A DNA stretch of 64,000 bases from Anaerolineae bacterium (GTDB lineage: Bacteria; Chloroflexota; Anaerolineae; Aggregatilineales; Aggregatilineaceae), in the NCBI GenBank assembly GCA_016930015.1, contig JAFGHR010000021.1, positions 1-64,000 on the forward strand. Direction: 5' to 3'. The first letter of the stretch is position 1. Each line of letters begins with the position of its first letter. The notes beneath the pieces were generated by a model. That model had not been told where the DNA came from. It ran no database searches and worked only from the letters and a program-made list of their open reading frames with translations. Made by a program: the position numbers and the translations under genes. Shown piece after piece: positions 2,893 through 15,648 of this stretch.

Positions 2893-3266
2893 CCGTCGTT
2901 TTCGCCGCCGCGCGCTTGATCGCGCGCGTGCTGGATAATGGCTTCGACGTCCAACGCGGACGGCTGCCATAGAAACTTGTTCATGGCGATGGTGTCATTG
3001 TCGTCAAAAACGACACCTTCCGCTTCGAGTTTGGCCCGCTGGCGCGCGGCAACATCCGGCGACCCTTTGATGCTGATGCGTCCCTGGGCATTCACAACAC
3101 GGTGCCAGGGAACCTCCGGCTCTGGCCCGGTGAGACTGCCCAGCGCCCAGCCGACGGATCGCGCGCCACGCGGCACGCCCAGCAGCAGCGCCACCCGCCC
3201 GTAGGACAGCACGCGTCCCGCCGGGATGCGGCGTACCAATGCATACACTTGTTGGTTAAACGACAT
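2889..3266 (-). CDS. Alkyltransferase-like (ATL) DNA-binding protein, MGMT family
   Basis: A 125-residue protein of the O6-alkylguanine-DNA alkyltransferase C-terminal fold. The helix-turn-helix region and the arginine-finger area are recognisable (GRVLSYGRVA, ARSVGWALG). The active-site motif PCHRV reads PWHRVV, so the alkyl-accepting Cys is replaced by Trp. In known ATL proteins this gives a non-enzymatic sensor that flips O6-alkylguanine and hands the lesion to nucleotide excision repair; that role is inferred here. The open frame extends upstream to 3362, but the ATG at 3266 (MSFNQQVYAL) matches the usual family N-terminus and avoids overlapping the divergent gene that starts at 3304. Confidence 0.88.
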   Translation of the reverse strand: MSFNQQVYALVRRIPAGRVLSYGRVALLLGVPRGARSVGWALGSLTGPEPEVPWHRVVNAQGRISIKGSPDVAARQRAKLEAEGVVFDDNDTIAMNKFLWQPSALDVEAIIQHARDQARGGENDG

Positions 3267-3303
3267 CGGTGAATCGGCCAACCATGCACCTCGGAATCTG
3301 CTC

Positions 3304-4419
3304 ATGAAACCACATTCTGCCCGCTTATTCCGCCCCTGGACCCTGGTGCTGATCCTGGGCATGATCTATCTTGGCGTGATCCTGATTGTCAACAGCGGCG
3401 ATCCCAAAACGTTTGTCACGCTGGGTGACTGTTTCAGCCAGTGCGCCGGGCTGGACGGTGAAGCCTGCGACGATGACGAAGGTTACGACGGGCAGTTTGC
3501 CTATTATATCGCGCGTGACCCGGTTGGCTCGCCGGACTGTCTCGACATGCCCGCGTACCGGTTGCAGCGCATCCTGCTGCCCGCGTTGGGGCGAGCGCTC
3601 AGCCTGGGGCACGATGGGTTAATCCCGTGGGCGTTCGTGATCATCAACCTGGCGGCGCTCGTGATCGGGACCGCGCTGGTCGAGCGCCTGCTGATCACGG
3701 ACAAAACAAGCCGCTGGTTTGCGCTCAGTTACGGGCTGTTCATCGGCGTGTTTATGGCCGTGCGGCTCAGCACGAACGAAACACTTGCCTACGGGCTGGT
3801 GATCGCGGGCATCTGGTATGCCGAGCGTGATCGCCCCTGGCAGGCCGCGATTTTGCTGGCGCTGGCCGGATTAGCCAAAGAAACGACCGGGTTGTTCACC
3901 GCCGGATACCTGCTGTTTTACGCGCTGCGCCGCCGCTGGCGCGACGTGATCCGGCTGGCCGTGATCGTGGGTGTGCCGTTTGCCGCGTGGCAGATCGTCC
4001 TGTATGACTGGCTGGGCGCGGTCGGAATCGGGTCCGGCGGCGCGAAGGCCACCCCCTTTGAGATCATCCCCTACAACGGCGTGTGGCGGATCGCGTTCGA
4101 CGGCGGGCTGTTGGTGTTCCTGGTGCTGGGTGCGCTCGTGATCCCGGCGGCGGTGCTGCCGAGTCTGTGGGCGCTGCGGTATACCCTGCGCGATTTACGA
4201 CTGGGTCCGCCGGGCGTGTACGCCTGCCTGCTGCTGGTCAACGCTGCGATCATGCCGTTTGTGCCGTTTTCGACGTACCGTGAATATTTGGGACTGCTGC
4301 GGTTTATGCCGGGGCTGGTGCTGATGGTGGTGCTCTATGCCGCCCGGTACAAACACCAGCGCCCGCTGTTATACAGCACGCTGTGGATCGTGCTGCTGCT
4401 GTTCCTGGTCGTTGGCTGA
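3304..4419 (+). CDS. Polytopic membrane protein with GYDGQF motif
   Basis: A 371-residue protein with about nine or ten hydrophobic segments and a short basic N-terminus. After the first membrane helix comes a cysteine-containing extracytoplasmic segment with GYDGQFAYYIARDP. That motif is common in uncharacterised membrane proteins linked to cell-surface glycopolymers and resembles the catalytic-loop region of GT-C-type glycosyltransferases, but no glycosyltransferase residue can be assigned firmly. The ATG at 3304 is chosen over the upstream frame start at 3226 because it begins a normal membrane-protein N-terminus and leaves a 37-bp gap to the divergent ATL gene. Its last 51 bp overlap the convergent YfhO-like gene. 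Function unknown. Confidence 0.75.
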   Translation: MKPHSARLFRPWTLVLILGMIYLGVILIVNSGDPKTFVTLGDCFSQCAGLDGEACDDDEGYDGQFAYYIARDPVGSPDCLDMPAYRLQRILLPALGRALSLGHDGLIPWAFVIINLAALVIGTALVERLLITDKTSRWFALSYGLFIGVFMAVRLSTNETLAYGLVIAGIWYAERDRPWQAAILLALAGLAKETTGLFTAGYLLFYALRRRWRDVIRLAVIVGVPFAAWQIVLYDWLGAVGIGSGGAKATPFEIIPYNGVWRIAFDGGLLVFLVLGALVIPAAVLPSLWALRYTLRDLRLGPPGVYACLLLVNAAIMPFVPFSTYREYLGLLRFMPGLVLMVVLYAARYKHQRPLLYSTLWIVLLLFLVVG

Positions 4420-6738
4420 TCCGCGCTTCCGACTGCCGAGTGTTACCAGCCCCAACGCGACCAGCAGCGCGATCAGGCTGCCGCCCACGCCGGCCATTTC
4501 ATGATTCACACGATAACGCAACGTGACCGTGCTCTCGCCGGGGGAGATGATCACGGCCAAAAACGCCAGGTTGGCGCGGTACAGGTCCGTGTTTCGCTCG
4601 TTGATCGACGCTTCCCAGCCGGGATACCACGTGCTGCTGATCACCAGGTAGGCGGCATTCTCAGCATCCACGCGAAAGCGTAATTCGTCCGGATCATGGG
4701 GCAGGACGGTCACGCTGCCGCCTGCCGGGGCGGTCGGAATCGGCGCGTCAGGTGGATCACCCGCCAGCAGCACGGTATGTGCCGGGTCCCATGCTGGATC
4801 GCGGAGCGCGTCACTTATCGCGTCATCGGAATCGAACCATTCCGCCGAATCCACCAGCCACGCCAGCGGCGCCGGCGCATTATGCGCGGCGTCATACGGG
4901 GCATGGTACGGCGCGGTATCTCCCTGCCAGCCGTCCGGCGGTGCATCGGCAAATACCTGGGTTACGCCCGCCGCCCGGAGTAATGCCGACGATTCGCCGC
5001 CCATGTCTTCGATCAGGTCCACGTACTGGCCGTGATAACGCGGCAGCAGCGGATCAAAATTATTGAACGTCAAAATGTGGTCGAGCATAGTCAGATTCGG
5101 CAGCAGCGAGGCCCGTACCGCGTCCCGGTTATCTTTCGCCACGCGGTAATCGGACAGGTCAAAAAACTGGTCGTACAGCACCTTGTCCTGGACATCCTCA
5201 AACCAGTAGATACGCCCGTCCGGGGGTGTGATTGCGCGCGGATCGTAATAGTCGCCAGGAATCATCGGGTTCAGGCCGCCGCCCGCCCACGCCAGGTCAC
5301 ACGCGACAAATACCAGCACCGCCGCCGACCACAAAACCCGCGATTTACCGACCGGTTTTAGCCCCTCGACCGGCTGTGTCAGCGTCAGCAGGGCCGCGCC
5401 AGCGATCCAGCAGCCCAGCACGATCATACCGTCGGCGAGCACATCGAGCGTTTCGGCGTCAACATCGACCATCTGAGGGATGACGAGCGCCATCACGACG
5501 ATCCCGCCGCCGCCCGCCGCCGCCAGGCGCGACCAGAACACGACCCACTTACCGCGCCCCCAGTGCTGCACGCCGATCCCGGCCAGCACCGACAGGCTGA
5601 ACACCACCAGGACCAGCCAGCGCACCGGCTCGCGGAACGCGTCGAACGTCGGCACGTAGTCGTACAGCAGGCGGAACACCGGCCCGTGACGCCCGGTCGC
5701 GATGATCAACGCCAGCAGCGCCAGCGCCAACCACAGCGGCACACTGCGAAACGTGGGGTATTCGTCCAGCGCGCGCCGTTTTCGCATCCAGCCCACGACC
5801 GCCGCCGCCGCCGAGATCAGCGGGATAAAGCCGATATACGCCGCGTCTTCGAAAAAGATGCCGTTGGTGAGATATGAGCCATCAGCGGGCGTGCCGTAAA
5901 AATTCGGGCTGAGCAGCGTCACCAGCCGGAACGGGTTATATGACAGGTTGGCGGTAGTTTTATAATCCAGCCCGCTGGCGCGGTGCGATTCGGCCAGGTA
6001 TTCCGCCGTCGGGAGCAGTTGCACCGCCGCGATCCCCACGCCGAGTCCGATTCCCAACCCGGCCAGCAGCAGGGCCATTCCACGCTGGCGACCGGATGCG
6101 CTGCGCTGGCCCCACATGGTCGCCCACACCGCGTACAGGCCCACGCCGACCAGCGCATACCATACCGTCTGGGCGTGCCCGGCCAGAAGCTGCAAGCCCA
6201 TCACCAGCGCCAGCCAGCCGACATCACGCCAGCGCCGCCCCGTGATCACGCGGTGTACGAGCCAGAACAGCCACGGAATCCAGGCGACCGTATCCGCCGT
6301 GGGAAACGACCCCACCCGACCGATCACATACCCGGACAGCGCGTAGGACAGTGTGCTGATGCCGCGCCCCAACACCGGCAGCCCCAGCGCCCCGGTAAAC
6401 AACCACATCCCCGCCCCGGCCCACGCGAGATGCAGCAGCGCGATCACGGACATCGCCAAAGCATCCGGCAGCAGCATATGCAGCCAGTTGGGCGGGTAAA
6501 AGACCGCCGTCTGGTAGTTGGCCAGCAGCGGCGATCCCGCCCCGGTATACGGATTCCAGGACGGCAGCCGCCCCTCGGCCAGTTCGCTGAACGCAAACTC
6601 ACGCCAGGGATAAAATTGCAGCGACGGCAGGCCCCAAAACAGGGTTTTGCCTTCCAGCAGCAGCGGGTAAAACAACGCGCCCAGCATCACCCCCAGCAGC
6701 GCCAGCGGCAGCCATCCCGGCACAGATCGGTTAGTCAC
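4369..6738 (-). CDS. YfhO-family membrane protein (module B, copy 2)
   Basis: A 789-residue protein with about a dozen transmembrane segments in the first 480 residues and a soluble extracytoplasmic C-terminal part before a last membrane helix. The N-terminal loop (FYPWREFAFSELAEGRLPSWNPY followed by GxPLLANYQTAVFYPPNWL) is typical of YfhO proteins, which have a GT-C fold and are implicated in glycosylation of surface polymers. It is the last gene of a leftward four-gene run, overlapping the upstream gene by 8 bp, which suggests translational coupling. Its 3' end overlaps the convergent gene at 4369-4419. Substrate unknown; assignment to the family is by motif and topology. Confidence 0.8.
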   Translation of the reverse strand: MTNRSVPGWLPLALLGVMLGALFYPLLLEGKTLFWGLPSLQFYPWREFAFSELAEGRLPSWNPYTGAGSPLLANYQTAVFYPPNWLHMLLPDALAMSVIALLHLAWAGAGMWLFTGALGLPVLGRGISTLSYALSGYVIGRVGSFPTADTVAWIPWLFWLVHRVITGRRWRDVGWLALVMGLQLLAGHAQTVWYALVGVGLYAVWATMWGQRSASGRQRGMALLLAGLGIGLGVGIAAVQLLPTAEYLAESHRASGLDYKTTANLSYNPFRLVTLLSPNFYGTPADGSYLTNGIFFEDAAYIGFIPLISAAAAVVGWMRKRRALDEYPTFRSVPLWLALALLALIIATGRHGPVFRLLYDYVPTFDAFREPVRWLVLVVFSLSVLAGIGVQHWGRGKWVVFWSRLAAAGGGGIVVMALVIPQMVDVDAETLDVLADGMIVLGCWIAGAALLTLTQPVEGLKPVGKSRVLWSAAVLVFVACDLAWAGGGLNPMIPGDYYDPRAITPPDGRIYWFEDVQDKVLYDQFFDLSDYRVAKDNRDAVRASLLPNLTMLDHILTFNNFDPLLPRYHGQYVDLIEDMGGESSALLRAAGVTQVFADAPPDGWQGDTAPYHAPYDAAHNAPAPLAWLVDSAEWFDSDDAISDALRDPAWDPAHTVLLAGDPPDAPIPTAPAGGSVTVLPHDPDELRFRVDAENAAYLVISSTWYPGWEASINERNTDLYRANLAFLAVIISPGESTVTLRYRVNHEMAGVGGSLIALLVALGLVTLGSRKRGSANDQEQQQHDPQRAV

Positions 6739-8416
6739 GCGGCACCTCGAAGATCAGGTATGTGTCGGTTGAATCGGTCAGCGTATCCAGCAGGATCAGC
6801 CCCTCTGACCAGGTCGGCACAGCCGCGGGCATGGCAGCAGCGGGATCGCCGCTGATGTCAGCTTCCAGCGGGCCGTAAAACACGTAATCCACTTCGGCCA
6901 GCAGCGCGGCGCGTGCAGCGGCGTCCAGCGTGCCGCTAAAAAACTGCTCGGCGCGGTCTTCCTTGTCGTCCGCGTGGATCGTTTCGGGACCATGCCCGAC
7001 ATACGCGATCAGACCGGTGCGCGCGGGCAGCACGTTGCCGGTTTTTTTGGAACTGAGCACGACCGCATCACGCGGCGCGATGGCGTCCAGGCGATCCAGC
7101 ATGGTCAGCTCCGCCTGGGGACGAAACAGCGGGCGATCCGGCGTCAGGGCGCCGAACATCCCGCCCAGCCAGAGCAACATCGCTGTCGGCAGCACCAGGA
7201 TCAGAATCACCGTGCGCGCCCGCCGGTAGCGGCGAACGTGCGGAAATAACAGGCGCAGCCCGGCCACCGCCAGGATGCTCAGCGGCACGATCACGCCTTC
7301 GGCCAGCCGCCGCTGCACGTTGATCGGCAGGTAGACGAGCAGCGGCACGATCACGATCCAGGCGGCCAGCAGCAGGTACGGCAGGCTGTCGGCGGATCGA
7401 TCACGCTCGCCGGATGCACCTTTGCGCCACGCCCAGCGCAGGGCGGCCACCGCCGGAACAGCTAACACACTATAACCGAATACGTAATGCAGCGGGTGCG
7501 GTGACGGAAGCAAATTCTGCGCCGACCAGCGGCGGTACACATCACTGCTGGCGAACACAGCCGCGCTGTAGAGCAGCACCGGCAAAACAACCAGCGCCGC
7601 GCTGATCACCCGCCAGAACAACGCCCACGGGAACCGGCCCCGGCTGATCCACGCGGCCAATCCCCAGCCGCCGAGCACAACATATAACACCGCGACGTAA
7701 AACGGCACGCACAGCCCCATCACGACCCAGCACACTCCGGCGGCCAGTGTGTCGCGCAGCCACGAGCGCGGGCCGGGCGTGTGCAGTGCTCGGAACAATA
7801 ATAAGAATCCGGCCAGCATCGCGCCGCGTGCCAGCGCCAGGTGCGGCAGGCCGAACAGGATCAAAAAACTGTAACTTTCCGGCACGTAAAAATCGAGCGG
7901 CAGTGATCCGAGCCAATCACTCAGCCCGACCAGGCTCAGCGCCCAGCCCAGCCCGCCGCCCAACGCGATCAGGATCAACGCCAGCATTCGCGCCCGTGGT
8001 GATCGCAAAAATACGGCCACAAACCGGTAGCTGGCCAGGATCAGCAAAAAGCCAAACACGACTCGCGCCGCGTGGAATGTCACGGCCAGCCCCGTCATCA
8101 GGTCCGGGTTGTTCGCGCCTACGAACAACACGGTGAGTTTGCCCAGCAGGATATACGGCAGGAAAAATAACGCGCCGTCGTGCGGTTCGCTCGTGTAACG
8201 GATCGTGAACAGCCAGTCACCGCGCGCGCCCAGCCGCATTTTCGCCAGGTAACTGTAACCGTCGTCGGCGCCGAATAAAAACCCGCCAAACGTCCACCCA
8301 TCGCCCGCTGCCAGCCAGCCGACCATATACGGCAGCGTCGTGATCAGCATCACCAGCCCGCCAAACACGATCACGCGCCGCCATTCCGCTTTAGATACGC
8401 GTCCCCGATCAGGCAC
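6731..8416 (-). CDS. Polytopic membrane protein (module A, copy 2)
   Basis: A 561-residue protein with about twelve hydrophobic segments. An N-terminal loop carries DDGYSYLAKMRLGARGDWLF, then TSEPHDGALFF. The same pattern (DGxxYLxKxxxGxxGxWLFxxRxTxExHDGAxF) occurs in the product of 10477-12150, so the two are paralogues. The C-terminal extracytoplasmic domain is short. The acidic first loop and topology resemble GT-C glycosyltransferases, but no specific activity can be assigned. It overlaps both neighbours by 8 bp, so all are probably made from one mRNA. Confidence 0.75.
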   Translation of the reverse strand: MPDRGRVSKAEWRRVIVFGGLVMLITTLPYMVGWLAAGDGWTFGGFLFGADDGYSYLAKMRLGARGDWLFTIRYTSEPHDGALFFLPYILLGKLTVLFVGANNPDLMTGLAVTFHAARVVFGFLLILASYRFVAVFLRSPRARMLALILIALGGGLGWALSLVGLSDWLGSLPLDFYVPESYSFLILFGLPHLALARGAMLAGFLLLFRALHTPGPRSWLRDTLAAGVCWVVMGLCVPFYVAVLYVVLGGWGLAAWISRGRFPWALFWRVISAALVVLPVLLYSAAVFASSDVYRRWSAQNLLPSPHPLHYVFGYSVLAVPAVAALRWAWRKGASGERDRSADSLPYLLLAAWIVIVPLLVYLPINVQRRLAEGVIVPLSILAVAGLRLLFPHVRRYRRARTVILILVLPTAMLLWLGGMFGALTPDRPLFRPQAELTMLDRLDAIAPRDAVVLSSKKTGNVLPARTGLIAYVGHGPETIHADDKEDRAEQFFSGTLDAAARAALLAEVDYVFYGPLEADISGDPAAAMPAAVPTWSEGLILLDTLTDSTDTYLIFEVPRD

Positions 8417-10511
8417 GATGAACCATCCACCATCCGCAGCCAGCAGCTAGCAGCACTATACTCGCTACCAGCAGACTAAGCCAAGTCGCTGCCGGATCGG
8501 CGGCATACGTCCACTGCTGCGCCCCGGAATCCACATGCCCCGGCAGGCCGGGATCATCGCCGGGTGCATCCTGCCAGCCCTCATTTGTCACCGCAAAAAC
8601 CGGGCCGTCTACCGGTTCCGCCGCCGTGATGGTCACGCGGTTGGGACCATCCCAGGCCAGCGACACGGGCAGCGCGGCCATGTTGCGGTAGACGTACACG
8701 CCGTTGATCCGCGTGTTGAGCACCAGCCCGTCAGCCTCTAGCGGGAAGGCGGACACGACATGAGTCACCAGCCAGCGCCCCAACAGCGCCGCATCGACCG
8801 GCGCGTCACGGTTGGCGGTGGTGAAGTCACCTTCGCCGCCGCTTATTTCATAGGCCGGGATCGTCACGCTGTAACCGCTGGCAACTACGCCGGTCGCTTC
8901 CTCGGCAGCCGTCACGTAGTCCGCCAGTTGGAACGGGTCCACGCCGCCAAACTGGGCGATATCCCAGTACGCGGCGGCCTGCTGCGGCAGGCTGTAACTC
9001 GGCGAATACACGCGCACGGCCCCGGCGTCTTCCAGGTACGCGGCCAGCTCGCGGTACGGATCGAGCCATTCGCGCCGGGAACGCCCATCTACCAGCGACC
9101 GGTCGATCCACAACACATCGGCCAGCACCACGATCACAAACAGCGCTAACAACGTGTGTGCGGGTAATTTGCCCTGGATCGCCAGCAGCACGAGCAGCGC
9201 CACCGCCGGAAGCGCAAACGTACCCAGCAGCGGCGCCGTATCCAGGTAGGGGGTGAGCACAATCAGGCTGGAAAAACTGCATACCAACCCGCCGCCCAAC
9301 AGCGTCACCACGATCAGGCGCACGTTCCGCCGGTTACGCGGGCGCTCGACTAACGCCTGTGCGCCCCACCCGGCCAGATAGGGTACGATCAGCGCGGCGA
9401 TCAGCCAGATACGCGGCGGCACGCGCCACCAGCGCAGCGGCGGCACGAGTCGCACCAGCAGCGGCCATAACACAAAGTGATCGCCCATCGCGTACAGCGC
9501 GATTACCAGCAGCGCGATCCCCCAGAATGCCAGCTTACGAGGACGCAGCAGCAGCGCGATCACGGCCAGCACCAGCGTACTGATGCCGGTGTAGATCAAT
9601 GTTTCCCACGCGCCGCCGTGATTCCCGATCAGCAGCCCGGCCCAATGCCCCCAGGTCAGGCTGTCCAGCGCCGAGTCAGCCCGCGAGATCGCGCCGCGTG
9701 ACAGGTCAGCGCGCAGCAGCAGAAGCGGCACCCACTGCACCGCTGTCAGCCCAAGGGTGATCAGCCCGGCCAGCAGCACCCGCCCCCCGACAGCCCGCCG
9801 CGCCGCGCCCGTTCGCAGGTCCGGCACCTGCCACCAGCGCCACACCAGGTAAGCCGCCGCCATCACCAGCGCGTAAGCGCTCAGCCGCACGTCCGCCAGA
9901 AAACACAGCGCCGCGGCTGCCGCCAGCCATACCGGGGCGCCCGGTGCCGGGTGCGGCGTGACCAGGCGCACCACCGCCCACAGCAGCCACGGGCACCACG
10001 CCGCCGCGTACACAATATCCAGGTGACCCGCGCCCAACGCGGCGATCACGCGCGGCGCAAACGTATAACCCAGTCCGGCTAAGGCCGCCGCCCAGGGTGA
10101 TAGGCCCGTTGTACGGCTCCACAGCCACATACCGGTCCCGGCGGCCAACAAGTGCAGCGCGATCAACACGTTCAGGTGGACCGCAGGCGGCAGCACAAAA
10201 ACCAGCCACTGCGGCGGATACCAGGCTTTGTTCAGGGGATTAGCGGCGAAGGGCTGGCCGCTCATCAGCAGGGGACGCCACAGCGGCCAGGCATGATCGT
10301 GTAACACCGCGCGCCGTAAAAACAGCGCGTTGGACCAATGGCTGGTCACGGCATCCGAATAATCCGACCCCGGCGGAAACGGCAGGCTGTCCGGCTCCAA
10401 CCCGACCCCGAACAAAAAGGCCGCCACACAGACGGCCAATATGCCCATAAAACCGAGGAATAAGCGGGTTTCCGGGTTAATCCTGTTCGACCAGTTCAAT
10501 AATCGTGACAT
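8409..10511 (-). CDS. YfhO-like membrane protein (module B, copy 1)
   Basis: A protein of about 700 residues with roughly a dozen transmembrane segments, a C-terminal extracytoplasmic domain and a last membrane helix ending in WWMVHRA. The first loop (WPLWRPLLMSGQPFAANPL then YPPQWLVFVLPP) parallels the equivalent loop of the 4369-6738 product, marking it as the same type. The start is uncertain. The frame is open back to 10556, but the ATG at 10511 gives a shorter overlap (35 bp) with the upstream gene. AAGGAG lies directly against this ATG, which is too close for ideal spacing, so a slightly downstream TTG at 10499 is possible. Third-party function unknown; probably cell-surface glycan related. 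Confidence 0.75.
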   Translation of the reverse strand: MSRLLNWSNRINPETRLFLGFMGILAVCVAAFLFGVGLEPDSLPFPPGSDYSDAVTSHWSNALFLRRAVLHDHAWPLWRPLLMSGQPFAANPLNKAWYPPQWLVFVLPPAVHLNVLIALHLLAAGTGMWLWSRTTGLSPWAAALAGLGYTFAPRVIAALGAGHLDIVYAAAWCPWLLWAVVRLVTPHPAPGAPVWLAAAAALCFLADVRLSAYALVMAAAYLVWRWWQVPDLRTGAARRAVGGRVLLAGLITLGLTAVQWVPLLLLRADLSRGAISRADSALDSLTWGHWAGLLIGNHGGAWETLIYTGISTLVLAVIALLLRPRKLAFWGIALLVIALYAMGDHFVLWPLLVRLVPPLRWWRVPPRIWLIAALIVPYLAGWGAQALVERPRNRRNVRLIVVTLLGGGLVCSFSSLIVLTPYLDTAPLLGTFALPAVALLVLLAIQGKLPAHTLLALFVIVVLADVLWIDRSLVDGRSRREWLDPYRELAAYLEDAGAVRVYSPSYSLPQQAAAYWDIAQFGGVDPFQLADYVTAAEEATGVVASGYSVTIPAYEISGGEGDFTTANRDAPVDAALLGRWLVTHVVSAFPLEADGLVLNTRINGVYVYRNMAALPVSLAWDGPNRVTITAAEPVDGPVFAVTNEGWQDAPGDDPGLPGHVDSGAQQWTYAADPAATWLSLLVASIVLLAAGCGWWMVHRA

Positions 10512-12150
10512 CTCCTTCGATGACTTTCTGCTGAATACGTTCAGGCGCGATTTCATCCACGCACTTACCGGTATCGGGATAGGTCACGCCCTCGTCGTCT
10601 TTGTCAAGTGACTGCTCTTGAGGTCCCCACAAAATGTAGCCCACCTCAAACGGCACCGCGTCGCTGAACAAGGTAGTACAGTCCTGCCCGCGATACCAGG
10701 CATACATCATGTCTTTGTTTTCCTTGTTGGGCACCGTCTCAAAATCGTGTCCAAAAACGACCACCTGGTCGGTGTAAGCCGGAATCCACAGGCTGATATT
10801 GGGCGAGGCCAACACCACCGCGTCATCACGTGCCTCGTCTTTGAGCCATTCCATCGCGTGCCAGTAATCGGTTTCGATCAGCAGCCCTGTATCCAGGCCG
10901 CTGTCTGTATTGGCTACCGCGCCAAACAACGGCAGTCCCAGGTTCAATACGTTGGTCGGCAGCAGAAATACAATCAGCGCGATCATGGCCGGAGCACGCC
11001 AGTTTTGGGGCACCTTGTAAAACCAATAATCCTCCAACGCCCGTACTCCAAAATACACCAGTGGTATGATCAGGCCCAGCGCCAGGCGGCGTTGAAGGTT
11101 AAAGGGGGCGTACAGCCCCACCACGTTCACAATGAACCACAGCAGCATAAACTGGTCGCCGTCGCGCTCAAACCGGCGAACGGCGCGCGCCAGCCCCGGA
11201 ATCGCCACGATCAGCAGCAGCCCATACCCGAACAGGTACAGGTACGGGGCCGGTGACGGGGTCTGGTTCTGCTTGTTGAACGCGTGCATGACATCGTTAA
11301 AGTGGAAAACGGCCACATAATACACGGCAAACGGCACAGCCGGGAGCCACAGCATCGATGCCCAGCGCAGTTCATGGACCGGGAATTTACGCGTCAGGTA
11401 GGCACGCACGATCACATACAAAACCAGGCCGCTGCCGATCGATACGAGCGCCGTTGGTTGGATGAGCGCCAGCAGCATCGCCAGCAGCATAATACCCAAC
11501 CCGCCGTTTTCCACACTGGGCGGGGCATCATAACCGCGCCGGAACACGATCAGGTAGGCCGACGCGAGTAAGCACAAACTGGCGATGCTCAACGGAAAAT
11601 GAGGATTCGAATAGGCAGCAAAAAACGGGAACGCTTCCGGAATGTTCATGTCCACCGCGATCGCGTTCTCGTCAAACAGCAGCAAAAACCATCCCAGGCC
11701 AGAGCCAACGCCCATCAGGGCAAAAAACAACCGTCGAGGTCGCAGCCGGACCCAGATGGTTGCGCCAAGCTGGTAGATCGAGATATACATGAACAAACTG
11801 GTGGCCACGCGCGCCAGGTGAAAGATCAACACGTTCGACAAACCGATAATGCGGGCCGCGTGACCGAGAAACAGGTACACCGTGTGAAACCCGGCGCCAT
11901 CATGTTTTTCAGGTGTATGGCGCATCTCAAACAACCATTCACCCTGGCGACCCTGCTCGATCTTGGACAGGTACGTCGCGCCGTCCTTGGGGTTAGACAA
12001 CATCCCCATAAAACGCGAGCCATCATCCGACTCATTACTGGCCAACGCCCACGCATACGGCACCAGCGTGAGCGCTACCAACAGCCCGCTCAGAATGATG
12101 ACCCAACGCCATTCGACGGTCGAAATGTCCACAGAACGCAGTGTTTGCAT
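10477..12150 (-). CDS. Polytopic membrane protein (module A, copy 1)
   Basis: A 557-residue protein with about twelve hydrophobic segments, first gene of the leftward four-gene run. The N-terminal extracytoplasmic loop has DGATYLSKIEQGRQGEWLF and then TPEKHDGAGF, the same pattern as the 6731-8416 product. A run of conserved prolines and aromatic residues after helix 5 is also shared. The ATG at 12150 is preferred over the frame start at 12174 because GAGGGA sits about six bases before it. Probably a GT-C-like or transport-related envelope protein; the sequence alone does not decide. Confidence 0.75.
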   Translation of the reverse strand: MQTLRSVDISTVEWRWVIILSGLLVALTLVPYAWALASNESDDGSRFMGMLSNPKDGATYLSKIEQGRQGEWLFEMRHTPEKHDGAGFHTVYLFLGHAARIIGLSNVLIFHLARVATSLFMYISIYQLGATIWVRLRPRRLFFALMGVGSGLGWFLLLFDENAIAVDMNIPEAFPFFAAYSNPHFPLSIASLCLLASAYLIVFRRGYDAPPSVENGGLGIMLLAMLLALIQPTALVSIGSGLVLYVIVRAYLTRKFPVHELRWASMLWLPAVPFAVYYVAVFHFNDVMHAFNKQNQTPSPAPYLYLFGYGLLLIVAIPGLARAVRRFERDGDQFMLLWFIVNVVGLYAPFNLQRRLALGLIIPLVYFGVRALEDYWFYKVPQNWRAPAMIALIVFLLPTNVLNLGLPLFGAVANTDSGLDTGLLIETDYWHAMEWLKDEARDDAVVLASPNISLWIPAYTDQVVVFGHDFETVPNKENKDMMYAWYRGQDCTTLFSDAVPFEVGYILWGPQEQSLDKDDEGVTYPDTGKCVDEIAPERIQQKVIEGDVTIIELVEQD

Positions 12151-12312: not shown

Positions 12313-13014
12313 ATGAGTCAACCCCACGCGCTTTATCACCTTCAGCGCATCGATCTTGCCCTTGATAAACGCCGGCAGCGGCTGCGCAAGATCACGACCG
12401 AGCTTGAGCAGAACACAACCGTCCAGGACGCGCGGCAAGTCGTCACCGCGCTCGAAGCCGAACAGCGCCCGCAGCAAGCCCGTTCAACCGACCTGGAACT
12501 GGAAATCCAGTCCACCATTACCCAAACCGAACAGTTATCCAACCGGCTGTACAGTGGCAAGGTCGGCAATCCCAAAGAATTGCAGGATATCCAAAACAAA
12601 ATTGCCGAGCTAAAGCGCCGCCGCTCAGACCTGGAAAGCAAATTATTGGAAACGATGCTGACGCTCGATAACCTGCGCGACTCGCTGTCTACGTCTTCCG
12701 CGTTTCTGAAAGAAACTGAATCCACGTGGACTGACGAAATGGAGGCGATGCTAACCGAGCAAAAACGCCTCAAACGTGAGATCAAAAAGCTCAAAATCGA
12801 CCGCCAAGCCGCCGAGCAGGATGTTTTCGAAAGCAACCTTGATCTATACAACACGTTACGTGTTCAAAAAAAGGGCCATGCCGTCGCCAAGCTGGATGGG
12901 GAAACATGTACCGGCTGCGGTGTGGGCCAAACCAGCACACTTGTTCAACAGGTGCGCCATGGGCAGGACGTGATCATGTGTCCTAGCTGCGGGCGCATTC
13001 TGATAGCGCTTTAA
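12313..13014 (+). CDS. Coiled-coil protein with C-terminal C4 zinc ribbon (CdsZ-type)
   Basis: A 233-residue protein. Residues about 10-180 form a long antiparallel coiled coil rich in Glu, Lys, Arg and Leu. The C-terminus is a zinc ribbon with CxxC at 199/202 and CxxC at 223/226 (CTGCG and CPSCG). This architecture is PF02591 (zf-RING_7), now called CdsZ; members bind nucleic acid or other partners, but their roles are poorly defined. The gap to the following NACHT-like gene is only 12 bp, so the two are probably co-transcribed from the promoter at 12196. Function in this organism unknown. Confidence 0.88.
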   Translation: MSQPHALYHLQRIDLALDKRRQRLRKITTELEQNTTVQDARQVVTALEAEQRPQQARSTDLELEIQSTITQTEQLSNRLYSGKVGNPKELQDIQNKIAELKRRRSDLESKLLETMLTLDNLRDSLSTSSAFLKETESTWTDEMEAMLTEQKRLKREIKKLKIDRQAAEQDVFESNLDLYNTLRVQKKGHAVAKLDGETCTGCGVGQTSTLVQQVRHGQDVIMCPSCGRILIAL

Positions 13015-13026
13015 CGGGATGCTACC

Positions 13027-15648
13027 ATGCGTTTTGATCCGATCTCGTTTCTGTTAGGGTTCCTGTCGTCCAGTGGGATCGCGTTCGTGCTGTGGCGCGC
13101 ACGTGCTCGACTGGCTCGGCTGCAAGAATCCACCGAGGCGCAGATCGCAGGCACGCGGCGTTTTATCGGGCGTTCCGCCCAGGCACGCTACTGCCGCGAT
13201 CTGCTCAATTACTTACAGCAGCACCACATTGCCGGAAGTGTGATCAACCTGACCGATATCTTACTAGAACCACGCTTGATCCCGGCGGATGGCCCGGTGC
13301 TTGCCCGTCCTGATGACGAAGAAACCCAGCGCAGCGTGTTTGACGTCGTCCCACTGATCCACAGCATGCCGCAAAGTTATGCGCTGTACAATATCGAGAC
13401 ACTCGGCATCGATGAGATCGGGATCGGCGCGCGGCACGTTGCGATTCTAGGCTCGCGCGGCACGGGTAAAACTACCACGCTGGCGACGCTGGCGCTGATG
13501 GCGTTCGGTGAAGTCGAATTTGAGTCGCTGGAAGACCTGACCGAACAGGCGATTTTAGAGGAAGAACAAAGCCTGTCCGAAGACGAACGCCGGATGCGTG
13601 CGCGTGAACGCCAGCAGATCGAAGAACGCGCGATCGAAAAACTACACGACGCTCACCAGCGTGAGCGGGAAAAACTGCTCCAAACCGAGATGGCCGACGA
13701 ACTGCCGCCGGTTGAGATATCGGGTCTTCTGCCGGTGTTTATCCACCTGTGTGACCTGGATTTTGACGCAGCGGCGTATGGCCGGAGTGATCAGCACCTG
13801 GACCCCAGCGAGCCGGTTATACGCGCAGCGCAGCAGCACGTATCCGGTGTAACGGCCCAGGTCGTCGGCAGTGTACTTTATCCCGCGTTGGAAAATGGCC
13901 GCGCCTTGATCCTGATCGACGGCTACGACGAATTGGAGCCGTCCGCACGTGACATGTATTTCCACTGGCTCCGCCAGTTTTTGGAAACATACGGGCAGAA
14001 CCTGACGGTCATCACCGGGCCGGCTGAGGGTTACGAACCATTGATGACACTCGGTTTCACGCCGACGTTTTTACGCCCCTGGCGTGAGGATGATTACGAT
14101 CAACTGGCGCGACGCTGGGGCAACATCTGGACACCGGGCGGCAAACGCCGGGTTGAGCCGCCCAGCGAACAGGCTTTGCGCCGCATCACCGCTGATAACC
14201 GGGGTCGTAATATTCTGGATGTCAGCCTGAAAATCTGGGCCGGGCTGGCCGAAGACGTGCGTGAACCTGGGCGCGGCGGCTGGTACGATGCCTGGATCAC
14301 CCGCCGCCTGTCAAAACCTGATGCTGGCGACTGGCTGGCCCTGTTAGCATCCCAGATGATCGAAGCCGGGTCACCAGTCACACGTGCCAGCCTGCTTGAA
14401 GCCGTGGCCGGTACACTCCCCGCGCCGGAAGAGGGCAAAAAAGCAGCAAAACCGGAAGACATGATCGATTTGGATGATCTGGTGCGTGACGGCTTGTTGA
14501 AACACCACGCCAATGATACCTTCAGTTTTGTGCACCCGATGATCACCAGTTATCTCGCCAGCAAAACCCTTCTCGAAGGCGGGTCAGACCTGGCAACCCA
14601 GGTCGCGCTTGACCCTGCCTGGCAGGATGCGCTGGGATTCGCCGCCGTGTCCCTGAATATGCTGCCGCCGTTATACCGCCGCTTGAGTGCCACGCCCGAC
14701 TTGATATATTCAAACCTGTTTGGATTGGTAAGCTGGCTTCCCGACGCCCCGGTTGACGCGCCCTGGCGCGGCGATGTGTTCAAACGCCTGGCGGCAGCGC
14801 TGATGGCACCGGATCAATACCCGGCCATGCGCGAGCGTGCCATGGCGGCCTTGATCGCGGCCCGCGACAAAAACGTGTTGTATGTTTTCCAGCAAGCGCT
14901 GCGTGCCGCCGATCCTGATATCCAGCGGTTGGCCTGTATTGGGTTGGGCGCCTTGGGCAGTCCCGAAGCGATCAAGGATATCGCGCCCCTGTTGGGCAGC
15001 GATAACCCCACCGTGCAGCTTGCTGCCGGGCTGGCATTGGGCGCGATCGGCACCGAACACGCGCTGGAAAACATGGTGCAGGCACTGGTTCACGGCTCCG
15101 AAGACCTGCGCCGGGCCGTTGCCGAAACACTGGCCGCGATCCCCAACGAGGGGCACAGCGTGTTACGGGATGGCATCGAATCGGACGATATCATGATCCG
15201 CCGGGCAACCGTCTACGGGTTGAGCCGGGTCCGGTCGTCGTGGGCGGTTGTGGCGCTGTACCGTATTATGCTGGAAGACGAACAATGGTATGTGCGCACC
15301 GCCGCGGAAGAAGCGTTCATGGCGGCACAAGCACCCGAACGCGCCGGGCTGCGCCCCGCTCCTGAAGCTGACTCGTTGGTGTGGCTGATCCAGTGGGCTG
15401 CCGACAAAGGGGAAGGTGTCCCTGCCGGACCCAACGCGCGGCAGGTGTTGGTCCGCGCGCTGCAAGAAGGCCAGCCGGTATACCAGGCGATGGCCGCTAC
15501 TACCCTGGGTAATATGGGGCATGTCCCGGCGCTGAAAGCGCTCTACGGTGCGCTGCGTGAACGGCATCCGGAAGTACGCAGCGCCGCCTACCACGCCCTG
15601 GCCTCGATTCAGACTCGCATGGGCGAACCGCTGCCGGGCCTGGTCTGA
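13027..15648 (+). CDS. Membrane-anchored NACHT-like NTPase with HEAT-like repeats
   Basis: An 873-residue protein. Residues about 5-25 form a single N-terminal hydrophobic anchor. Walker A GSRGTGKT lies at 142-149 (Lys148), and Walker B ALILIDGYDEL ends near 302 with its Asp at 298; the GYDEL ending is the NACHT style of STAND NTPases. Between them is a highly charged helical insert (about 165-235, with many Glu and Arg). A winged-helix-like region follows (about 440-530, with IDLDDLVRDGLLKHH). Alpha-helical HEAT-like repeats fill about 600-860 (for example IQRLACIGLGALGSPEAIKDIAPLL, given here as a description of repeat spacing only by its residues 636-660). STAND proteins act as ATP-driven switches in signalling or defence. 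No effector domain is visible. It lies 12 bp after the zinc-ribbon gene. Confidence 0.82.
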   Translation: MRFDPISFLLGFLSSSGIAFVLWRARARLARLQESTEAQIAGTRRFIGRSAQARYCRDLLNYLQQHHIAGSVINLTDILLEPRLIPADGPVLARPDDEETQRSVFDVVPLIHSMPQSYALYNIETLGIDEIGIGARHVAILGSRGTGKTTTLATLALMAFGEVEFESLEDLTEQAILEEEQSLSEDERRMRARERQQIEERAIEKLHDAHQREREKLLQTEMADELPPVEISGLLPVFIHLCDLDFDAAAYGRSDQHLDPSEPVIRAAQQHVSGVTAQVVGSVLYPALENGRALILIDGYDELEPSARDMYFHWLRQFLETYGQNLTVITGPAEGYEPLMTLGFTPTFLRPWREDDYDQLARRWGNIWTPGGKRRVEPPSEQALRRITADNRGRNILDVSLKIWAGLAEDVREPGRGGWYDAWITRRLSKPDAGDWLALLASQMIEAGSPVTRASLLEAVAGTLPAPEEGKKAAKPEDMIDLDDLVRDGLLKHHANDTFSFVHPMITSYLASKTLLEGGSDLATQVALDPAWQDALGFAAVSLNMLPPLYRRLSATPDLIYSNLFGLVSWLPDAPVDAPWRGDVFKRLAAALMAPDQYPAMRERAMAALIAARDKNVLYVFQQALRAADPDIQRLACIGLGALGSPEAIKDIAPLLGSDNPTVQLAAGLALGAIGTEHALENMVQALVHGSEDLRRAVAETLAAIPNEGHSVLRDGIESDDIMIRRATVYGLSRVRSSWAVVALYRIMLEDEQWYVRTAAEEAFMAAQAPERAGLRPAPEADSLVWLIQWAADKGEGVPAGPNARQVLVRALQEGQPVYQAMAATTLGNMGHVPALKALYGALRERHPEVRSAAYHALASIQTRMGEPLPGLV

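What the first reader, a model, noticed from the sequence alone, without database searches (positions are those of the whole stretch)
4369..12150. Four overlapping membrane-protein genes in an A-B-A-B order
The products of 10477-12150 and 6731-8416 share the loop pattern DGxxYLxKxxxGxxGxWLF followed by HDGAxF. The products of 8409-10511 and 4369-6738 share the YfhO-type loop with YPPxWL. The order A1-B1-A2-B2, with overlaps of 35, 8 and 8 bp, points to duplication of a two-gene unit. It would make a paired system, perhaps two membrane glycosyltransferases working on one surface polymer. The pairing is inferred; no biochemical function is known to me.
Basis: partly seen in the sequence, partly recalled or inferred. 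Interest (0 to 1): 0.6.

Follow-up and report, generated by a model that had tools for sequence, protein, structure and literature searches.

The report
Conserved four-gene membrane glycosyltransferase cassette
[quoted passage not shown] the set recurs in the same order in distant relatives, and its last member has always lost the amino acid thought to drive the reaction, so it may be an inactive helper.

Summary
Four minus-strand genes overlap in the order A1-B1-A2-B2. A1/A2 share 30% identity over 546 aa; B1/B2 share 28% over 336 aa. The cassette is colinear in a dozen Anaerolineae contigs, with overlapping or nearly abutting genes in all but two. In 199 genomes of the class, A1, B1, A2 and B2 orthologues co-occur (B1 with B2: 21 both, 3 single). 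Confident AlphaFold models of A2 and B2 match GT-C glycosyltransferases (STT3, AglB, Pmt4, AftD, ArnT). "Membrane glycosyltransferases" is therefore well supported at fold level.

The simple story of a duplicated A-B unit is not. A1, A2, B1 and B2 are four old clades. Ordinary YfhO proteins lie between B1 and B2 in the tree; sisterhood is disfavoured (AU p = 0.033). B2 is closer to other YfhO proteins of its own genome than to B1.

Unexpected result: the first-loop aspartate that serves as catalytic base in GT-C enzymes is present in A1 (27/27, one as Glu), A2 (25/25), B1 (27/27) and 30/30 other YfhO proteins, but in 0/25 B2 proteins. I propose three active transferases plus a probably non-catalytic partner, making or decorating a surface glycan. 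Chemistry and acceptor are unknown; nothing was tested at the bench.

The parts
10477..12150 (-). A1: GT-C-type membrane protein (557 aa), first gene of the cassette; first-loop Asp at residue 56 (codon 11985-11983)
   Evidence: ORF; 30% identity to A2; A1 clade of 28 rows, SH-aLRT 99; first-loop acid in 27/27
8409..10511 (-). B1: YfhO-like GT-C protein (700 aa) with the first-loop Asp (residue 53 of this ORF, codon 10355-10353)
   Evidence: ORF; no Pfam hit of its own but homologous to B2; B1 clade of 29 rows, support 99; Asp 27/27
6731..8416 (-). A2: GT-C-type membrane protein (561 aa); first-loop Asp52 (codon 8263-8261)
   Evidence: ORF; AlphaFold pLDDT 94.3; STT3/AglB/DPY19/AftA/ArnT folds, Z up to 21.1; A2 clade of 25 rows, support 99
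4369..6738 (-). B2: YfhO family protein (789 aa) without the first-loop Asp; invariant W35-G36 and Q41-F42, P44-W45 there; C-terminal outside beta domain (about residues 625-742) and a last membrane helix
   Evidence: PF09586 E = 7e-18; AlphaFold pLDDT 91.7; GT-C matches Z up to 17.5; Asp 0/25; B2 clade of 19 rows, support 100
6628..6636 (-). B2 codons for W35-G36-L37: the place where other YfhO proteins carry the first-loop Asp (position 37)
   Evidence: alignments; position 37 is the first residue of the first-loop helix H37-54 in the model
3226..4419 (+). Convergent neighbour: GT87 / AZOBR_p60025-family cell surface glycopolymer formation protein, overlapping the 3' end of B2 by 51 bp
   Evidence: same family at the same place in L042 and L043 (convergent) and in L113 and L115 (co-directional)

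Best explanation
[quoted passage not shown] Sugars carried on a polyprenyl phosphate are flipped outward, and A1, A2 and B1 transfer them to a surface glycan (or a surface protein), each using the first-loop aspartate as catalytic base. B2 keeps the fold, other conserved YfhO residues and a large outside beta domain but has lost that aspartate. It most likely does not transfer sugar itself and instead holds the acceptor or scaffolds and regulates the others. Basis of each step: gene order, homology, co-occurrence and loss of the Asp are shown here; GT-C fold comes from predicted models of A2 and B2 and is inferred by homology for A1 and B1; lipid-linked donor, outside reaction and surface glycan follow from established knowledge of GT-C and YfhO proteins; a physical complex and the helper role of B2 are inference.
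For: Fold: A2 matches STT3, AglB, DPY19, AftA and ArnT over nearly the whole chain (Z 16-21, 443-483 residues aligned); B2 matches STT3, Pmt4, AftD and ArnT (Z 13-17.5). A profile of the A family hits the PDB sequence 3vu0 at E = 3e-5 (from memory, the C-terminal domain of an archaeal AglB). Linkage: A1-B1-A2-B2 colinear in the window and 11 other loci: L040-L044, L051, L096, L110, L113, L115 and, with inserted genes, L099. The 8-bp overlaps recur in L041, L042 and L043. Co-occurrence in 199 genomes: A1/B1 21 both and 6 single (p = 2.5e-22), B1/B2 21 and 3 (p = 4e-25), A2/B2 15 and 9 (p = 1.6e-15). Active-site acid: A1 27/27, A2 25/25, other A 39/39, B1 27/27, other YfhO 30/30, B2 0/25, including six B2 genes read from other contigs. 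The equivalent Asp is the catalytic base in PimE, ALG6, ArnT and PglB (PMC12041525); GtlB first-loop Asp-to-Ala variants are inactive (PMC5836110). Context: NF046093 glycopolymer protein beside the cassette; Bac_transf initiating sugar transferases directly after B2 in L098 and L080; GT2 genes resembling polyprenyl-phosphate sugar synthases near the genes in L115, L099, L140 and L141; one GtrA-type flippase gene in the genome.
Against: No activity, lipid carrier or acceptor was measured. No GT2 or flippase gene lies inside the cassette in this genome. A2 is on a different contig in G083 and G055, and B2 in G006, G015 and G080, so tight linkage is not required everywhere. G127 has A1-B2 without B1. 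A1 and B1 were not modelled. Co-occurrence counts ignore relatedness of genomes. An Asp-less GT-C protein could still be active by another residue: B2 keeps conserved E246 and E297 and has its own acids D298 and D553.
Confidence: 0.55

Rival explanations
1. All four are active transferases, each adding one sugar of a repeat unit in turn; B2 uses a different catalytic acid or mechanism, and gene order only reflects co-transcription.
For: B2 keeps the GT-C fold, an outside beta domain, and conserved E246 and E297, with clade-specific acids D298 and D553. Relatives carry additional GT-C genes (PMT_2, GT87) at the same loci, as expected for a multi-sugar glycan.
Against: No acid lies 20-31 residues before the end of the conserved loop motif (PxW[NRST]) in 25/25 B2 proteins, while 57/57 B1 and other YfhO proteins have one; this position holds the catalytic base in characterised GT-C enzymes.
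Confidence: 0.25
2. The cassette is a tandem duplication of an ancestral A-B pair, and the two pairs now act on different substrates.
For: A1/A2 and B1/B2 are homologous and alternate; A1+A2 as sisters is not rejected (p = 0.26).
Against: B1 and B2 are separated by ordinary YfhO proteins; AU p = 0.033 against sisterhood; B2 scores higher against three other YfhO genes in its own genome than against B1. Several lineages have A1-B1-B2 without an adjacent A2 (L070, L075, L076, L098, L102).
Confidence: 0.15
3. The A proteins are oligosaccharyltransferase-like: they move a finished glycan from a lipid carrier onto protein, with the YfhO-like proteins modifying the glycan.
For: The best structural matches of A2 are STT3 and AglB, and the one PDB sequence hit of the A profile is 3vu0 (archaeal AglB from memory). 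O-glycosylation of archaellin was reported in a chloroflexotal species (PMC12488501).
Against: The WWDxG acceptor-binding motif of STT3/AglB/PglB is absent from the A consensus; the A C-terminal domain is short.
Confidence: 0.1

Closest known systems
YfhO (PF09586), e.g. B. subtilis and S. aureus YfhO of teichoic-acid glycosylation
   Same: B2 is over the Pfam cut-off; B1 is homologous to B2; GT-C fold; many membrane helices and a large outside part; YfhO genetically required for GlcNAc on lipoteichoic acid (PMC5836110, PMC8035078)
   Different: Two YfhO-type genes alternate with another GT-C family; B2 lacks the first-loop Asp; no adjacent GtrA or CsbB gene here; Chloroflexota, in which teichoic acids were not examined here
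STT3/AglB/PglB oligosaccharyltransferases and AftA, ArnT, DPY19 (GT-C superfamily)
   Same: Overall fold of A2 (Z 16-21) and first-loop Asp at the start of the first outside helix
   Different: About 10-13% identity; no WWDxG motif; no hit in Pfam or NCBIfam to any OST family
PgfM1/PgfM2 of Streptococcus mutans (NF047589, NF047590)
   Same: Two membrane proteins needed together for one surface-protein glycosylation (PMC5856776); weak profile matches to B2 (0.004 and 3e-6)
   Different: Far below the family cut-offs; Pgf genes are accompanied by PgfS (GT2) and PgfE; no A-type partners
PIGU of the GPI transamidase
   Same: A GT-C-fold subunit whose first-loop DxD motif is replaced (SSW) and that serves as a scaffold (PMC12653191); appears among B2 structural matches (7wld_U, Z 8.9)
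   Different: Eukaryotic, low structural score, no sequence relation shown; its complex attaches GPI anchors to proteins

Membership tests
GT-C glycosyltransferase superfamily | GT-C membrane fold | tested here: met
   A2 and B2 models match many GT-C structures over most of the chain; A1 and B1 by homology only
GT-C glycosyltransferase superfamily | Acidic residue (Asp) in the first outside loop: A1, A2, B1 | tested here: met
   27/27, 25/25, 27/27
GT-C glycosyltransferase superfamily | Acidic residue (Asp) in the first outside loop: B2 | tested here: not met
   0/25 by alignment and by distance count
GT-C glycosyltransferase superfamily | Transfer of sugar from a polyprenyl-(di)phosphate donor | not testable with these tools
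   needs enzyme assay
YfhO (PF09586) | B2 over the Pfam gathering score | tested here: met
   64.8 bits against a cut-off of 28.5
YfhO (PF09586) | B1 over the Pfam gathering score | tested here: not met
   no family listed for B1; relation rests on B1/B2 homology and the tree
STT3/AglB/PglB oligosaccharyltransferase | WWDxG motif in the C-terminal domain of the A proteins | tested here: not met
   absent from the 73-sequence consensus
Multi-component (three-component) transmembrane glycosylation system | Polyprenyl-phosphate sugar synthase (GT2) and flippase with the GT-C gene | tested here: inconclusive
   GT2 genes beside the cassette or beside an unlinked B2 in L041, L115, L099, L140, L141, none in the window cassette; one GtrA gene elsewhere in the genome; the genome's closest GT2 lies next to another YfhO gene on C76
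Tandem duplication of an A-B gene pair | A1/A2 sisters and B1/B2 sisters | tested here: inconclusive
   A1+A2 not rejected (p = 0.26); B1+B2 rejected at p = 0.033 on a reduced set; full-set tests did not finish

The most novel reading that the evidence does not exclude
A bacterial hetero-oligomeric GT-C complex of four paralogous subunits in which one YfhO-type subunit is a dedicated pseudo-glycosyltransferase, conserved under selection as an acceptor-binding or scaffolding part, a bacterial counterpart to PIGU.
Probability: 0.3. Interest if true: 0.75.

Novelty: new variant of a known kind. Interest (0 to 1): 0.5.

Why it matters
A fixed quartet of GT-C genes with one Asp-less YfhO member suggests that extracytoplasmic glycosylation in Chloroflexota may use dedicated non-catalytic GT-C subunits. 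A review asks exactly whether smaller GT-C enzymes need a second protein to bind the acceptor polymer (PMC8035078). It also gives a sequence mark (invariant W-G and Q-F-x-P-W around the missing Asp) for finding such partners, and an entry point to the poorly known envelope glycans of Anaerolineae. The A family has no Pfam or NCBIfam model of its own, so these genes are now unannotated.

Tried and rejected
Full-set AU tests (66 and 92 rows) did not finish and were replaced by reduced sets under LG+G4. An NCBIfam call failed because one badly chosen reference contained stops. Sequence search of the B alignment against PDB found nothing. The promoter and terminator scan gave only consensus matches, somewhat more than in shuffles, none usable as evidence. 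Literature search for YfhO with Chloroflexi, and for GT-C pseudoenzymes, returned no paper. Considered and dropped: a transporter or flippase role for A (its fold matches are GT-C, with transporter folds only at background scores); chance similarity of the loops (E-values and conservation exclude it). Models could not be exported, so the exact superposition of Asp52 on the STT3 catalytic Asp was not measured; only its place at the start of the first outside helix was read from the DSSP line.

Full report
WHAT IS THERE. Four minus-strand ORFs run A1 (10477-12150), B1 (8409-10511), A2 (6731-8416), B2 (4369-6738). The stated overlaps are correct for these starts; A1 starts at an ATG with an AGGGA site, while the B1 start is uncertain because its GGAG touches the ATG. 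A1/A2: 30% identity over 546 aa, E = 1e-54. B1/B2: 28% over 336 aa, E = 5e-18. A1 and B2 are not detectably similar by BLASTP. Only B2 reaches a Pfam family, YfhO. The genome is a 4.04-Mb draft assembly; both of its A genes are in this cassette. B2 also matches B1 and three further YfhO-like genes on other contigs.

GENE ORDER ELSEWHERE. I fetched flanks of the A matches from a 199-genome survey of the class and of four related MAG contigs named as Anaerolineae, Anaerolineales or Chloroflexi, then classified the ORFs by score against the four window proteins. A1-B1-A2-B2 is colinear in L040, L041, L042, L043, L096, L044, L051, L110, L113 and L115, and in L099 with extra genes between; gaps are mostly overlaps or a few tens of bases, with L044 (363 bp) and L099 the exceptions. 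L040 and L096 are cut by contig ends. Reduced forms: A1-B1-A2 (L046, L049), A1-B1-B2 (L070, L075, L076, L098, L102), A1-B2 (L080). In G083 and G055 A2 is on another contig (L097, L101). In G006, G015 and G080 B2 is on another contig.

CO-OCCURRENCE. Counting orthologues by tree clade or strong score in the 199 genomes: A1/B1 21 both, 4 and 2 single; B1/B2 21 both, 2 and 1 single; A2/B2 15 both, 2 and 7 single; Fisher p from 3e-14 to 4e-25 for all six pairs. Both B1-without-B2 cases (G085, G143) are highly fragmented assemblies. The p-values ignore relatedness and should be read as strong association only. In a 201-genome sample of the phylum the A family occurs in 45 genomes, in several families.

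FAMILY HISTORY. In the A tree, A1 (28 rows, SH-aLRT 99) and A2 (25 rows, 99) are separate clades, with about 39 other A proteins outside both. In the YfhO tree, B1 (29 rows, 99) and B2 (19 rows, 100) are separate, with 18 other YfhO proteins between them. Reduced-set AU tests: B1+B2 as sisters p = 0.033, A1+A2 p = 0.26. Within its own genome B2 is closer to three other YfhO genes than to B1. A single duplication of an A-B unit is therefore disfavoured on the B side and open on the A side. The four genes were already distinct before the sampled families of the class diverged.

FOLD. A2 was modelled from 73 sequences at pLDDT 94.3. It matches STT3, AglB, DPY19, AftA, Pmt4, PglB and ArnT, Z 16-21. 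B2 was modelled from 41 sequences at pLDDT 91.7 and matches STT3, Pmt4, AftD, PglB and ArnT, Z 13-17.5. For helical proteins Z up to about 13 can be background; the top values lie above that, and GT-C entries fill nearly all high ranks. A1 and B1 are inferred by homology.

THE MISSING ASPARTATE. In GT-C enzymes an Asp at the tip of the first juxtamembrane helix is the catalytic base; PimE D58 and its equivalents in ALG6, ArnT and PglB are described in PMC12041525, and first-loop Asp-to-Ala variants of GtlB fail to complement in PMC5836110. In the A alignment this position (A2 Asp52) is acidic in 27/27 A1, 25/25 A2 and 39/39 other A. In the YfhO alignment it is Asp in 27/27 B1 and 30/30 other YfhO but in 0/25 B2. 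A count by distance, without use of the column, agrees: an acid lies 20-31 residues before the end of the conserved loop motif (PxW plus one residue) in 27/27 B1, 30/30 other and 0/25 B2. B2 has W35, G36, Q41, F42, P44 and W45 invariant there. The loss also holds in B2 genes read from other contigs than their cassettes. Members of the B2 group were chosen by overall score and tree, not by this residue. B2 keeps conserved E246, E297 and Arg residues, so it is not decaying.

SURROUNDINGS. The convergent gene 3226-4419 belongs to the AZOBR_p60025 'cell surface glycopolymer formation' family; the same family lies at this place in L042 and L043 and is co-directional in L113 and L115. Directly after B2 come sugar-phosphate initiating transferases (Bac_transf) in L098 and L080, and a GT2 gene in L041. 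L099 and L115 carry GT2, methyltransferase and PMT_2 genes. Unlinked B2 genes in L140 and L141 sit with GT2 plus PMT_2 or GT87 genes. The 247-268-aa GT2 proteins resemble polyprenyl-phosphate sugar synthases, well below family cut-offs. All this points to a surface glycan, without naming it.

MECHANISM. Shown: linkage, co-occurrence, fold of two members (predicted), conservation and loss of the Asp. Established elsewhere: GT-C proteins use lipid-linked donors outside the membrane, and YfhO proteins are needed for teichoic-acid glycosylation (PMC5836110, PMC8035078). Inferred: A1, A2 and B1 are active; B2 is a helper; the four act on one polymer, perhaps as a complex. PIGU is a known GT-C-fold subunit whose loop DxD is replaced and which serves as scaffold (PMC12653191); this is an analogy, not membership.

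VERDICT. The feature is real and conserved. It is a new arrangement of known kinds of protein, with one surprising, testable property (the Asp-less B2). I rate it a new variant of a known kind, interest 0.5.

Noticed in passing
window 12313-15648: A divergent pair, a CT398/CdsZ-like coiled-coil zinc-ribbon protein (Pfam and NCBIfam) and a P-loop NTPase with HEAT-like repeats, sits beside the cassette; ORF pairs of similar sizes sit at the same place in L041, L042, L043, L096, L113 and L115 (only the L041 pair was scanned).
   Followed up: partly
window 3226-4419 and 4369-6738: The convergent GT87/AZOBR_p60025-family gene overlaps the 3' end of B2 by 51 bp.
   Followed up: partly
L072:6350-11108: Three A-family genes in tandem with 4-bp overlaps and no YfhO gene between them (G011).
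   Followed up: no
L098:522-2006, L102:865-2337: A 494-aa protein with no Pfam family follows the Bac_transf gene directly downstream of the cassette in L098; an ORF of matching size and place in L102 also has no family.
   Followed up: no
L093:3298-7983 (G000:C76): A 1561-aa YfhO-like protein of the same genome lies next to the GT2 gene that is 50% identical to the cassette-associated GT2 of L115, probably a separate glycosylation system.
   Followed up: no
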